NCBI GenBank assembly: GCA_902776955.1
Contig: CACYSG010000007.1
Coordinates: 20,673-84,672 of the forward strand
From: an uncultured Bacteroidales bacterium
GTDB lineage: Bacteria > Bacteroidota > Bacteroidia > Bacteroidales > Muribaculaceae
DNA length: 64,000 bases
Reading direction: 5' to 3'
The notes under the pieces were generated by a model. The model saw only the letters and a program-made list of their open reading frames with translations, had not been told where the DNA came from and did not search any database. This document shows, piece by piece, positions 3,813-59,747 of this stretch. Numbering within the stretch: position 1 is the stretch's first letter; every line of letters begins with the position of its first letter. The position numbers and the translations under genes are program-made.

Positions 3813-3961
3813 GTGCCATCAGTTGGGACGGTTCTTGTGATGGGCCAAAGCGAAGCGAAAGATGGTGCAAGCCGAATGCCATAATGCTTGCATTAATGGC
3901 TAAGGCGCAGCCCATCTTGTGCGGAGCAACCCCATCAACAAGACCCGTCCCAATGATGCAC
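3813..3961. repeat. Long nested hairpin element (copy 1 of a structured repeat)
   Basis: A left arm (3813-3844) and a right arm (3931-3961) are nearly perfect reverse complements (GTGCCATCAG... against ...CAATGATGCAC). Together they enclose a second structured core at 3861-3916. In the core, GATGG pairs with CCATC, GCC with GGC, GCCAT with ATGGC and AATGC with GCATT, leaving a GAA/TAA internal loop. A related core with different but still paired stems lies at 52615-52674. The element is in a non-coding gap of about 520 bases with no ORF. It could be a mobile hairpin or a structured RNA. Confidence 0.6.
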
Positions 3962-32577: not shown

Positions 32578-32598
32578 AGAATACCCCCCTAGCGGGCT

Positions 32599-32723
32599 GT
32601 GTCATAATTGCCATTCGGTAATATAACCGTGCTATCGCACGGGAAATTAAACAAATTTTTAAATTAAAATTATAGATTATTTTATCATTAATTTGCTTAA
32701 TTTCCCGCCCATAGGGCGGTTTT
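32599..32723. repeat. Inverted intergenic repeat, uninterrupted copy ('empty site')
   Basis: A left half (CCGTGC-TATC-GCACGG hairpin at 32627-32642, then GGGAAATTAAACAAATT to 32657) is inverted relative to a right half (AATTTGCTTAATTTCCC at 32690-32706, then CCGCCC-ATA-GGGCGG at 32705-32719). The hairpin sequences differ between halves but both keep perfect pairing. The left half, from GTGTCATAATTGC at 32599, also matches 52569-52616 plus 52682-52692, where a 65-nt insertion interrupts it. Confidence 0.6.
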
Positions 32724-32760
32724 AATTATAGCAGTTGTATTATTAGGATGAATGCAGGCG

Positions 32761-41950: not shown

Positions 41951-42029
41951 GTTAAGAGATAAGAGTTAATAGTTAATAGTTAACTGGCTAAAGGCTAACG
42001 GCTAACGGCTAATGGCTATAAGCTAAAAC
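41951..42029. repeat. Degenerate heptamer repeat tract (GTTAAnn / GCTAAnn)
   Basis: About eleven units of 7 bases with the core TAA run up to just before the ATG of era: first GTTAAGA/GTTAATA types, then GCTAAAG, GCTAACG (twice) and GCTAATG. This tract leaves little room for a conventional promoter. Confidence 0.65.
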
Positions 42030-42038
42030 CAAAGTAAT

Positions 42039-42920
42039 ATGCATCGAGCAGGATTTGTCAACATCGTGGGGAATCCCAACGTGGGAAAATCGACACTGAG
42101 CAACCGCCTGGTGGGCGAGCGCCTGTCCATCATCACGAGCAAGGCCCAGACGACGCGTCACCGCATCATGGGAATCGTTAACGGAGAGGATTACCAGATC
42201 GTGTTCAGCGACACGCCTGGTGTGCTCAAGCCCAAATTCAGGCTGCAGCAGAGCATGCTTGAATACTCCACCGGAGCGCTCGTCGATGCCGACGTGCTGC
42301 TCTACGTGACCGACGTGATCGAGACGCCTACCAAGAATCAGGACTTCCTTGACCGCGTTGCCAGGGAGAAAATCCCCATTCTCTTGATCATCAACAAGAT
42401 CGACCTGCTCAAGGGCAATGACGACCTGTTGCGCATCATCGACCAGTGGAAGGAGTTGCTGCCCAATGCCGAGGTGTTCCCTACCAGTGCGCTGGAGAAC
42501 TTCAACGTGGACAATATCATGAAGCGCATCGTCGAGCTGTTGCCCGAGAGTCCGCCCTACTTCGGCAAAGACGCTCTGACTGACCGCAGCAGCCGCTTCT
42601 TTGTGACCGAGATCGTGCGCGAGAAGATTCTGTTGACCTATGACAAGGAGGTTCCCTATGCCACCCAGGTGATTGTGGAGAAATTTGACGAGAGCGACAA
42701 TGCCATCCACATCATGGCGGTGATTTATGTCGAGCGTGACAGCCAAAAGGGGATTATCATCGGCCATCAGGGCAAGAAGCTCAAGCGCGTGGGCATGTTG
42801 GCCCGCAAGGACATCGAGACTTTCTTTGAGAAAAGGGTGTTCCTGGAACTCTATGTCAAAGTCGAGAAGGACTGGCGCAACCAGGAGAACAAGCTCCGCG
42901 CCTTCGGCTATATCGAGTAA
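42039..42920 (+). CDS. era: GTPase Era
   Basis: Era binds 16S rRNA and helps assemble the small ribosomal subunit. It has 293 residues. The G motifs are clear: G1 GNPNVGKST, G3 DTPG, G4 NKID. The C-terminal KH domain has 'YVERDSQKGIIIGHQGKKLKRVG'. Length is normal. It is followed by der after 69 bases, across another heptamer repeat tract. Confidence 0.95.
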   Translation: MHRAGFVNIVGNPNVGKSTLSNRLVGERLSIITSKAQTTRHRIMGIVNGEDYQIVFSDTPGVLKPKFRLQQSMLEYSTGALVDADVLLYVTDVIETPTKNQDFLDRVAREKIPILLIINKIDLLKGNDDLLRIIDQWKELLPNAEVFPTSALENFNVDNIMKRIVELLPESPPYFGKDALTDRSSRFFVTEIVREKILLTYDKEVPYATQVIVEKFDESDNAIHIMAVIYVERDSQKGIIIGHQGKKLKRVGMLARKDIETFFEKRVFLELYVKVEKDWRNQENKLRAFGYIE

Positions 42921-48815: not shown

Positions 48816-48840
48816 AGAATAATCATCCTTCCCGCCCCAG

Positions 48841-48867
48841 CTAAAGGCTAAAAGCTAACGGCTATTT
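48841..48867. repeat. Short CTAAnnn heptamer tract between lepB and the WbqC-like gene
   Basis: CTAAAGG, CTAAAAG, CTAACGG and a partial unit overlap the lepB stop codon at 48862-48864. Confidence 0.5.
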
Positions 48868-50307
48868 CTTATCCGGATTAGGCATCTTGAAGATGCGGTT
48901 CCAGCGGATGCCGCCGTTCATCAAGGAGTGGTCCTTGTCAAACGAGATGAGGATGATGGACGGGGTACCCACGATGTGGTCCTCGGGCACGAAGCCCCAA
49001 TAGCGGGAGTCGAGCGAGTTGTCACGGTTGTCACCCTGCATCCAGTAGTAGTCCATCTTGAAGGTGTAGCTCGTGGCGACCTTGCCGTTGATGAGGATTT
49101 GGCCGTCCTTGACCTCGAGGGTGTTGCCCTCGTAGTTGCGGATGCAACGCTCATAGAGCGGCAGGTTCTGGAGCGACAGGTTCACCGTGGCGCCCTTCTT
49201 GGGAATCCAGATGGGGCCATAGTTGGCATGCGTCCAGCCGTAGTCGGTGCCGATGGGATAGGTGATGACGGTCTCGCCGGGATCGGGTTGTATGCGCTGG
49301 ATGTTCAGCACCCACTTGTTGTCCTCGAGCTGCTTCTTCATCGCTGCGGTGAGGGGGAGGACGTAGAGGTTGGCCATCGGATTGCCGTACATGTCCACGG
49401 CGTTTTTGCGGTCGTCATAGCTGATGCCGAGTTCGTCGAACATGGTTTCGCTGATGGTAGTGCCGTCGGTCTCGACATAGTACATGTACTGGACGTTCTT
49501 GGGCTGGGGCACGGCCTGCCCGTTGATATAGACGATGCCGTCCTTGATCTGGAGGTTCTCACCAGGCAATCCCAGGCAGCGTTTCACATAGTTGTCGCGA
49601 CGGTCCACCGGTCGGTAGATGATGTCGCCAAAGACTTCGGTATTGTTGTGAACCACGTCGCGTCCCCTCTCGTAGCACAGGGTGTAATAGTCGGGGTTGG
49701 TGCACTTGAGAGCCACGGTGTCGCCCGCGGGGAAGTTGAACACGACGATATCCATGCGCTCGACATTGCGCAGGCCCTTCAGGCGATGGTAGGGCAGCTG
49801 CGGATGGTCAAAATAGGACTTGCAGTTAAAGAAGGGCAGTATGTTCTGGGTCAAGGGGAAGTGGAGCGGCGTTTGGGGCACGCGCGGACCATAGGTCACC
49901 TTGTTGACCCACAGGAAGTCGCCCGTCAGGAGGGACTTCTCGAGCGAGGACGACGGAATCTGGTAATTCTGGCCGACGAACAGGAACAGGAAGTAAACCA
50001 GCACCAGGGCATAGACGATGGCGTCAATCCAGCTCATGATGGTACGCAAGGGGCCTTTCTTCCAGCCCTTCCACGCTCCCCAGGGGATGAACTGGGTGAG
50101 GTAGATGTCGGCAAGCAACAGCAGGCCCAACAGGAGCAAGGGATTTCCCATCCAGATGGTCCACAGCACATAGATAAACGCCACGATGCCAAATCGCCAC
50201 CATCGCGTTTTCTTGACCCGTCCCAGTCGCTCACGCAGGGAACCCGTCTGCCTTACATATTCTTCTTCTTTTTTATCCTTGTTATTAACGTTGTTGTCTG
50301 TAGTCAT
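48862..50307 (-). CDS. lepB: Signal peptidase I
   Basis: The enzyme cleaves signal peptides of exported proteins at the outer face of the inner membrane. It has 481 residues from ATG 50307; the longer frame adds 24 residues without support. An acidic/lysine-rich cytoplasmic head and two to three membrane segments precede the catalytic domain. The Ser nucleophile is in 'NYQIPSSSLEKSLLTGDFLWVNKV' and the Lys general base in 'NYVKRCLGLPGE'. 'MQGDNRDNSLDSRYWGFVPEDHIVG' is box E. The protein is longer than E. coli LepB because of an insertion between the catalytic boxes, common in Bacteroidales. It probably handles the many secreted proteins here. Confidence 0.93.
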   Translation of the reverse strand: MTTDNNVNNKDKKEEEYVRQTGSLRERLGRVKKTRWWRFGIVAFIYVLWTIWMGNPLLLLGLLLLADIYLTQFIPWGAWKGWKKGPLRTIMSWIDAIVYALVLVYFLFLFVGQNYQIPSSSLEKSLLTGDFLWVNKVTYGPRVPQTPLHFPLTQNILPFFNCKSYFDHPQLPYHRLKGLRNVERMDIVVFNFPAGDTVALKCTNPDYYTLCYERGRDVVHNNTEVFGDIIYRPVDRRDNYVKRCLGLPGENLQIKDGIVYINGQAVPQPKNVQYMYYVETDGTTISETMFDELGISYDDRKNAVDMYGNPMANLYVLPLTAAMKKQLEDNKWVLNIQRIQPDPGETVITYPIGTDYGWTHANYGPIWIPKKGATVNLSLQNLPLYERCIRNYEGNTLEVKDGQILINGKVATSYTFKMDYYWMQGDNRDNSLDSRYWGFVPEDHIVGTPSIILISFDKDHSLMNGGIRWNRIFKMPNPDKK

Positions 50308-52547: not shown

Positions 52548-52568
52548 TCGGTTTTATGGATTGGGGGT

Positions 52569-52692
52569 GTGTCAGAATTGCGACCCGGCAATAAAACCGT
52601 GCTATCGCACGGGAAAGTTTGTGCAAACCGAAGGCAATGATGCTTGCATCAATTGCTAAGGTGCTGCCAAACTTCGGGAAATTAAACAAATT
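52569..52692. repeat. Intergenic repeat interrupted by a 65-nt hairpin insertion ('filled site')
   Basis: The flanks (GTGTCAGAATTGC... to CGGGAAA at 52610-52616, resuming at TTAAACAAATT from 52682) match 32599-32657. The inserted segment 52617-52681 ends with a second CGGGAAA (52675-52681). The insertion folds: AAGTTTG (52615-52621) with CAAACTT (52668-52674), ACC with GGT, GCAAT with ATTGC and GATGC with GCATC. This is the same layout as the core at 3861-3916. The 7-bp direct repeat suggests target duplication. Confidence 0.6.
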
Positions 52693-52727
52693 ATTATAGT
52701 TCTAGCCTTTGAATAATGAACACCTGT

Positions 52728-56127: not shown

Positions 56128-56245
56128 TTAAAGGTTAAAGGTTAAAGGCAACAGCTAATGGCTAACAGCTAACGGCTAAAGGCTAACAGCTAAAGTCTAA
56201 TGTCTAAAATCTAAAGTCTAATGTCTAAAATCTAAAGTCTAAAAA
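56128..56245. repeat. Long CTAAnnn heptamer repeat tract (about 17 units)
   Basis: Three TTAAAGG units are followed by CTAAxxG and CTAAxxT units in almost perfect 7-base phase up to about 8 bases before the ATG at 56254. It looks like a microsatellite that may change length. Confidence 0.75.
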
Positions 56246-56253
56246 ATAAACAT

Positions 56254-59660: not shown

Positions 59661-59747
59661 GTTTAAAGGTTAAAGGTTAAAGGGTTACAGACTAAGGACT
59701 AGGGACTAGGGACTAAGGACTAGGGACTAAAAACTAAAAACTAAAAA
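59661..59747. repeat. Heptamer repeat tract (TTAAAGG, then CTAAGGA/CTAGGGA, then CTAAAAA)
   Basis: About twelve units in 7-base phase lead directly to the ATG at 59750, with three CTAAAAA units nearest the gene. Confidence 0.7.

What the first reader, a model, noticed from the sequence alone, without database searches (positions are those of the whole stretch)
52569..52692. Filled and empty insertion sites of the hairpin element within one window
The repeat at 32599-32657 and the one at 52569-52692 align along GTGTCA.AATTGC...ACCGTGCTATCGCACGGGAAA/TTAAACAAATT. At 52617 the second has 65 extra bases consisting of the hairpin element plus a second CGGGAAA. This is what insertion of a small mobile element with a 7-bp target duplication would leave. 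It gives direct evidence, within the sequence, that the hairpin moves.
Basis: seen in the sequence. Interest (0 to 1): 0.85.

Follow-up and report, generated by a model that had tools for sequence, protein, structure and literature searches.

The report
Tiny jumping hairpin in gut bacteria
A 65-letter DNA hairpin with no gene of its own appears to have inserted itself many times, at short AAA-containing spots and into other repeats, across a group of gut bacteria; the window shows one repeat that holds it beside a copy that does not.

Summary
The hairpin is a 65-nt unit (model R1) with strong covariation.

As evidence of movement at this locus the reading is only partly right. The filled repeat is an established composite: its right junction occurs at 16 places in 5 of 101 congeneric genomes. 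And the 7-bp duplication is not the rule; the common part is AAA.

That the unit moves is shown elsewhere. One orthologous 90-bp gene leader, compared in 27 congeneric species, has three insertion sites, filled in 19, 11 and 10 species and otherwise empty, with 1, 2 or 3 tandem units at one site and two unit subtypes at that site in sister species. Other subtypes sit in equivalent host-repeat arms in four more species.

Units number 0-79 per genome (56 of 61 carry them) and are patchy in the order (14 of 198). No Rfam match. The enzyme is unknown: IS200-like transposase counts do not correlate; no integron integrase passes its cut-off. Best reading: a new, structure-conserved family of very small non-autonomous mobile hairpins, nearest in behaviour to Yersinia YPAL.

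The parts
52566..52724 (+). Host repeat, filled copy: long imperfect palindrome (MITE-like), here without its centre and inner right arm and with the hairpin unit inserted
   Evidence: (matched pieces 52566-52616, 52675-52696 and 52694-52724)
52610..52616 (+). Left CGGGAAA
52617..52674 (+). 58-nt insert without either CGGGAAA
52675..52681 (+). Right CGGGAAA
52613..52677 (+). 65-nt hairpin unit in the family register (starts NAAA, ends CTTCGG here)
   Evidence: R1 74.3 bits, E 4.8e-20
32598..32743 (+). Host repeat, empty copy, both arms present; empty site after 32646
3857..3921 (+). Second hairpin unit of the window, another subtype
   Evidence: R1 76.5 bits, E 1e-20
3825..3951 (+). A different palindromic repeat (GGGACGGTTCTTGTGATGGG...CCCATCAACAAGACCCGTCCC, judged by eye) that holds the unit at 3857-3921; a like composite at G000:C30:19572, and its right half at C31:25095

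Best explanation
The hairpin is one copy of a family of very small (mostly 65-78 nt) non-coding mobile units. A unit inserts at NAAA sites, so that AAA, often with neighbouring matching bases, stands on both sides afterwards. It inserts repeatedly at certain spots: arms of palindromic repeats, and gene leaders. It can then be copied along with its host repeat and can multiply in exact-period tandem arrays. Shown: precise presence and absence at one orthologous locus, AAA at many junctions, recurrent hits on the same host-repeat site, structure kept by compensatory change. Inferred: that a recombinase or transposase supplied in trans recognises the folded single strand and moves it; the enzyme is not identified. 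The window copy itself is a composite that carries an older insertion.
For: Leader of the gene starting MGLIDD in 27 congeneric species: site 1 filled in 19 of 27, site 2 in 11 of 27, site 3 in 10 of 27, all three empty in 1 of 27; empty stretches keep 24-26, 19 and 24-26 nt. Site 2 holds one unit in 9 species, two in G082, three in G053; site 1 holds two in G060. Sister species on well-supported branches differ (G060 empty / G059 filled; G047 subtype D / G015 subtype C), and such branches force at least 3 empty/filled changes. Among units not followed by another unit, AAA stands in phase after the unit in 19 of 27 genus units (AA in 27 of 27) and 11 of 26 own units (AA in 15 of 26), against 1.9% of background triplets. 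Covariation score 0.473 against 0.176 shuffled, 0 of 500 as high; in 41 matches from other genomes, fitted to the model, 0.452 against 0.145. The GAGACGCAAAATTTTGCGTCTC palindrome has 115 empty sites in the own genome (up to 2 mismatches) and 6 filled ones plus a partial one. Other subtypes sit in equivalent host-repeat arms in G013, G053, G016 and, less clearly, G072.
Against: No enzyme found. 8 of 27 genus units and 15 of 26 own units do not have AAA in phase on the right, so decay, rearrangement or a looser rule must be assumed. At the C6 locus 13 bases are shared, which a fixed staggered cut would not give. Precise loss between short repeats could explain some empty sites. The leader tree rests on 240 nt, 13 of 23 inner branches are weak, and occupancy of site 2 is no more clustered on it than shuffled labels (8 changes against a mean of 8.8). 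The genus loci examined were the best-scoring ones returned, not a random sample, and the model was trained mostly on own-genome copies (14 of 19 rows).
Confidence: 0.75

Rival explanations
1. The hairpin is now only an inner domain of the larger host repeat: it entered once, long ago, and what the window shows is copying of the composite by whatever moves the host repeat.
For: 16 filled right junctions with the same CGGGAAA in 5 of 101 genomes; composites at unrelated loci; 2 filled and 18 empty left arms in the own genome by script, one of these 18 with a unit a few bases further on.
Against: Units occur without this host: leader sites, the GAGACGC palindrome, a third palindrome, tandem arrays. 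Other subtypes sit in equivalent host arms with a different right junction.
Confidence: 0.12
2. The unit is a functional RNA (a leader structure or processing site) kept by selection on transcripts; it spreads by homologous recombination or gene conversion and not by a mobility system.
For: Strong covariation; 6 of 29 genus loci have a TAnnTTTG-like box just upstream against 87 of 2900 random windows; sites 2 and 3 of the leader are in sense direction.
Against: Site 1 of the same leader is antisense and is filled in 19 of 27 species; the window unit lies between two convergent genes; one own unit lies in coding-like sequence. At the leader sites the shared bases at the junctions are few.
Confidence: 0.15
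3. A REP-like element moved by an IS200/RAYT-type (Y1 HUH) transposase acting on the folded single strand.
For: A hairpin with conserved unpaired bases and head-to-tail junctions without spacer would suit such a route (inference).
Against: Unit number and Y1_Tnp count do not correlate (Spearman 0.02, p 0.88, 61 genomes); 5 genomes without a unit at E 1e-6 have 1-9 Y1 matches; 6 genomes without a Y1 match carry 4-43 units.
Confidence: 0.1

Closest known systems
YPAL / RU-2 (Yersinia palindromic sequence), from passages of PMC2229807
   Same: Palindromic mobile repeat without TA ends; target duplications of variable size (3 to 26 bp); targets span or lie next to dyad symmetry; mobility argued from empty and filled sites.
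   Different: YPAL is 168 bp and from Yersinia; the unit here is mostly 65-78 nt, from Bacteroidales, prefers NAAA and forms exact-period tandem arrays. Sequences were not compared.
ERIC / RU-1 and other bacterial MITEs (passages of PMC2229807)
   Same: The larger host repeat of the window (long imperfect palindrome, conserved ends, intergenic) has this general form.
   Different: ERIC is an enterobacterial 127-bp family with TA ends; by eye I saw no clear target duplication at the outer ends of the host repeat, and I did not search for its transposase.
BrickBuilt MITE of Porphyromonas gingivalis (abstract and passages of PMC4596501)
   Same: Bacteroidales; head-to-tail units without spacers inside a MITE-like element.
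   Different: 23-nt units between a leader and a tail with inverted-repeat ends; the passages I saw mention no covarying hairpin unit and no AAA target. Sequences were not compared.
REP elements (abstract start of PMC3733652) and REPIN/RAYT (PMC3116915, listing only; RAYT details recalled)
   Same: Short palindromic repeats in high copy number.
   Different: REPs are given as 20-40 bp; no correlation with Y1 transposases here.
Very small mobile repeated elements of cyanobacteria (recalled; the words of the title matched in 5 papers, not opened for this)
   Same: Very small, dispersed, judged mobile from filled and empty sites (recalled).
   Different: Paper not read; size, structure and target rule were not compared.

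Membership tests
MITE moved by a DDE transposase (small unit) | Terminal inverted repeats matching a resident IS | not tested
   The unit's ends pair with each other as the outer stem; no comparison with IS ends was made.
MITE moved by a DDE transposase (small unit) | Target duplication of fixed length | tested here: not met
   Where AAA stands on both sides the shared run is 3 to 8 nt, 13 at C6, and 17 where a partial second unit follows.
YPAL | Variable target duplication at or near dyad symmetry | tested here: inconclusive
   Shared bases vary and several targets are palindromic repeats, but the three leader sites are not obviously so (by eye).
YPAL | Sequence of the YPAL family | not tested
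   No YPAL sequence was compared; lengths differ (168 bp by PMC2229807).
REP/REPIN-RAYT | Association with a Y1 transposase | tested here: not met
   Spearman 0.02 over 61 genomes; 6 genomes without a Y1 match carry units. All Y1 families pooled.
Integron attC | Integron integrase in the genome | tested here: not met
   TIGR02249 over its cut-off in 0 of 61 genomes. 60 of 61 have weaker matches, as do all 14 control genomes, so these are probably general tyrosine recombinases (inference).
Integron attC | Folded single-stranded site with conserved unpaired bases | tested here: inconclusive
   Folded shape with conserved bulge and loop bases; recognition of it was not testable.
Any Rfam family | Match at gathering score | tested here: not met
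   Only tRNAs matched in the window and in 17 loci with units.

The most novel reading that the evidence does not exclude
A minimal mobile element that consists of nothing but a folded recombination site: a 65-nt hairpin whose shape, more than its sequence, is recognised as single-stranded DNA by a trans-acting recombinase of Bacteroidales, which inserts it at AAA and builds head-to-tail arrays, much as integron cassettes would if the cassette carried no gene.
Probability: 0.2. Interest if true: 0.85.

Novelty: new variant of a known kind. Interest (0 to 1): 0.62.

Why it matters
It gives a natural record, with empty and filled sites in 27 species at one locus, of how a gene-less element of about 65 nt spreads and alters a gene leader. 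It makes an old question testable: what moves such tiny repeats. It also warns that covarying hairpins in leaders may be mobile DNA and not regulatory RNA.

Tried and rejected
Integron integrase: none over the cut-off in 61 genomes. Y1 transposase: no correlation. Rfam: only tRNAs at gathering score; five matches on the region at E up to 5 were all far below gathering. Phage and plasmid records: no match to one unit copy, distant mode, E up to 0.01. In-frame insertion into proteins, as in Rickettsia palindromic elements (recalled): a long frame runs open through the unit at C25:30581, but I saw no general pattern in 30 own units. Literature: searches on palindromic repeats or structured mobile RNA in Bacteroidetes, Bacteroidales or Prevotella gave 4, 0, 0 and 0 papers; searches on ERIC, small dispersed repeats, BrickBuilt, YPAL and very small mobile elements are. 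I saw only passages of three papers (PMC5771137, PMC2229807, PMC4596501) and listings of the rest; none of what I saw describes this unit. Right arms of the host repeat were not counted by the script (its pattern fits left arms); in the listing those of the own genome look empty. Own junction statistics used 30 of the 37 R1 matches.

Full report
Observation. The first copy reads CGGGAAA-TTAAACAAATT, the second CGGGAAA-(58 nt)-CGGGAAA-TTAAACAAATT. Up to the site they agree at 45 of 52 bases. The second copy is not otherwise intact: after ...ACAAATTA it continues with the outer right end (TTATAGTTCTAGCCTTTGAATAATGAACACC), so the centre and the inner right arm are missing.

Host repeat. It is a dispersed, long imperfect palindrome of about 170 bp with ends GGTGTGTCATAATT/AATTATGACACACC; each arm has a small hairpin followed by CGGGAAATTAARCAAATT. 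A search of the own draft genome (3.23 Mb, 123 contigs) with one whole copy gave 70 matching pieces. Counting left arms by script in the loci I held gave 18 empty and 2 filled at CGGGAAA; one of the 18, at C17:3102, carries a unit a few bases further on.

The small unit. Nineteen copies, 14 from the own genome and 5 from named relatives, align to one shape: an outer stem of 7 bp, a bulged T, two G-C pairs, an internal loop, a 3-bp stem, a purine-rich loop and a variable inner hairpin. 87.2% of cells are paired against 70.0% in shuffles, and the covariation score is 0.473 against 0.176, reached by 0 of 500 shuffles; the number of further pair types alone is not above shuffles (170 of 500 as high). 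A second set of 41 matches from other genomes, fitted to the model and so leaning towards it, gives 94.7% and 0.452. Model R1 finds 37 matches in the own genome at E up to 0.1, 35 of them below 1e-6, and in the window two strong ones, 3857-3921 and 52613-52677, plus one at E 0.38 that I do not count.

The window copy is a composite. The right junction occurs at 16 places in 5 of 101 congeneric genomes: G000 2, G071 2, G073 8, G082 3, G091 1. Their flanks differ. The G091 copy has the unit in the opposite arm at the equivalent site, and G073:C40 has two units in tandem. The outer stem is AAGTTTG/CAAACTT in the G071, G082 and G091 copies and in the window, AAGCTTG/CAAGCTT in the G073 copies whose left side is present, and mixed in the own C39 copy. 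The mgtE gene beside the window site was found in 80 named records, by title mostly uncultured Muribaculaceae, Prevotellaceae or Bacteroidales, many from ruminant guts. I printed the downstream region of 39 of the 80. One, L104 (the same place as G073:C26, L206), carries a composite whose outer left part is missing. L111 carries a host repeat without the unit. In many of the 39 the neighbouring gene is another one, so these are not all strict empty sites.

Mobility shown elsewhere. I fetched the leader of the gene beginning ATGGGACTCATTGACGA from 28 of them. Two of the 28, G018 and G084, have an unrelated upstream region and were dropped, leaving 26 plus the own genome. G016 has a 90-nt leader without any unit. 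The other 26 carry units at one, two or three of three sites: site 1 (antisense) in 19 of 27, site 2 (just behind a TAGTAATTTTGC box) in 11 of 27, site 3 (in an A-run) in 10 of 27. An empty site keeps 24-26, 19 or 24-26 nt. Site 2 carries one unit in 9 species, two in G082 and three in G053, with a 65-bp period; site 1 carries two in G060. Two subtypes occupy site 2: C in 8 and D in 3. A tree from 240 nt of the coding sequence is weak (13 of 23 inner branches open), and occupancy is as scattered on it as shuffled labels; but strongly supported sister pairs differ in occupancy or subtype, and the strong branches force at least 3 changes.

What is shared at the junctions. At site 2 the empty form ACCAAATAAT becomes ACCAAA-ATTTGTGC...TTTATC-CAAATAAT: CCAAA stands on both sides. 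At site 1 it is CAAA. In the GAGACGCAAAATTTTGCGTCTC palindrome (115 sites with up to 2 mismatches) four of six whole filled copies share CAAAATTT, one shares 6 nt, and one has lost the match by a change on the right; a seventh copy is cut off on the right. In the host repeat of the window it is CGGGAAA. Other subtypes in equivalent arms share AAA in G013 and G016, GGAAA in G053, and AAATCTT in G072, whose host is a less clear relative. Over units not followed by another unit, AAA stands in phase after the unit in 19 of 27 genus units and 11 of 26 own units, against 1.9% of triplets in the same loci (2 and 4 tandem-followed units left out). The genus loci were the best-scoring ones the tool returned. 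At the C6 locus 13 bases are shared. Five of 12 relatives fetched for it (G048, G088, G032, G089, G080) have a single uninterrupted TTGGCACGATAATTGCA; the others have one or two units, a partial one, or short remnants. So the repeat has a short core and grows with the match between target and unit, which fits insertion guided by short similarity better than a fixed staggered cut.

Spread. R1 at E up to 1e-6 finds units in 56 of 61 congeneric genomes, 0-79 each, median 27. In a sample of the order it finds them in 14 of 198 genomes including the own one, in scattered families, again with tandem neighbours.

Which enzyme. Y1_Tnp matches and unit numbers are unrelated. No integron integrase passes its cut-off. 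I commit to a trans-acting enzyme that reads the folded strand, because the shape is kept while the sequence changes, also in antisense and non-genic places. This step is inference.

Against my reading. 15 of 26 own units and 8 of 27 genus units lack the in-phase right-hand AAA. Precise loss cannot be told from non-insertion at single sites. The genomes are drafts, and repeats are where drafts go wrong; but 26 leaders from separate assemblies agree in site lengths to within a few bases, which makes an artefact unlikely.

Noticed in passing
G000:C25:30581-30646 (L175), and L225, L239, L242; also L223, L230: Units sit at the same place inside a coding-like sequence in four congeneric genomes (L175, L225, L239, L242); two more (L223, L230) share the right flank only. 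In the own copy a frame runs open through the 66-nt unit (GDKGI-KTCASRMQNELARFAEAPPSLSN-QAQDEYQRL). By eye the gene resembles a phage tail protein; not tested.
   Followed up: partly
G000:C6:8598-8662 (L179) and L271-L282: Insertion at a TTGGCACGATAATTGCA sequence (looks like a sigma-54 promoter, recalled) leaves it doubled; some species carry several promoter-like copies or short remnants.
   Followed up: partly
genus loci L214-L242: 6 of 29 loci have a TAnnTTTG-like promoter box within 34 nt upstream of the unit against 87 of 2900 random windows; two of the 29 were mis-located by the script.
   Followed up: partly
G000, e.g. C5:20488-20562, C3:76735-76810: GAGACGCAAAATTTTGCGTCTC palindrome, 115 sites with up to 2 mismatches, several in pairs 53-54 bp apart; a second abundant repeat family of the genome.
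   Followed up: no
window 41972-42041, 48839-48880, 56128-56250, 59663-59738: Runs of short imperfect repeats (such as GGCTAAAGGCTAACGGCTAAT, TTAAAGGTTAAAGG, GACTAGGGACTAGGG).
   Followed up: no
G000:C9:54317 (L079), C97:4515 (L078): Very short element GAGGGTGTGTCATAATTCAGTTATGGCTCACCCTC that shares the outer end of the host repeat but has another interior.
   Followed up: no
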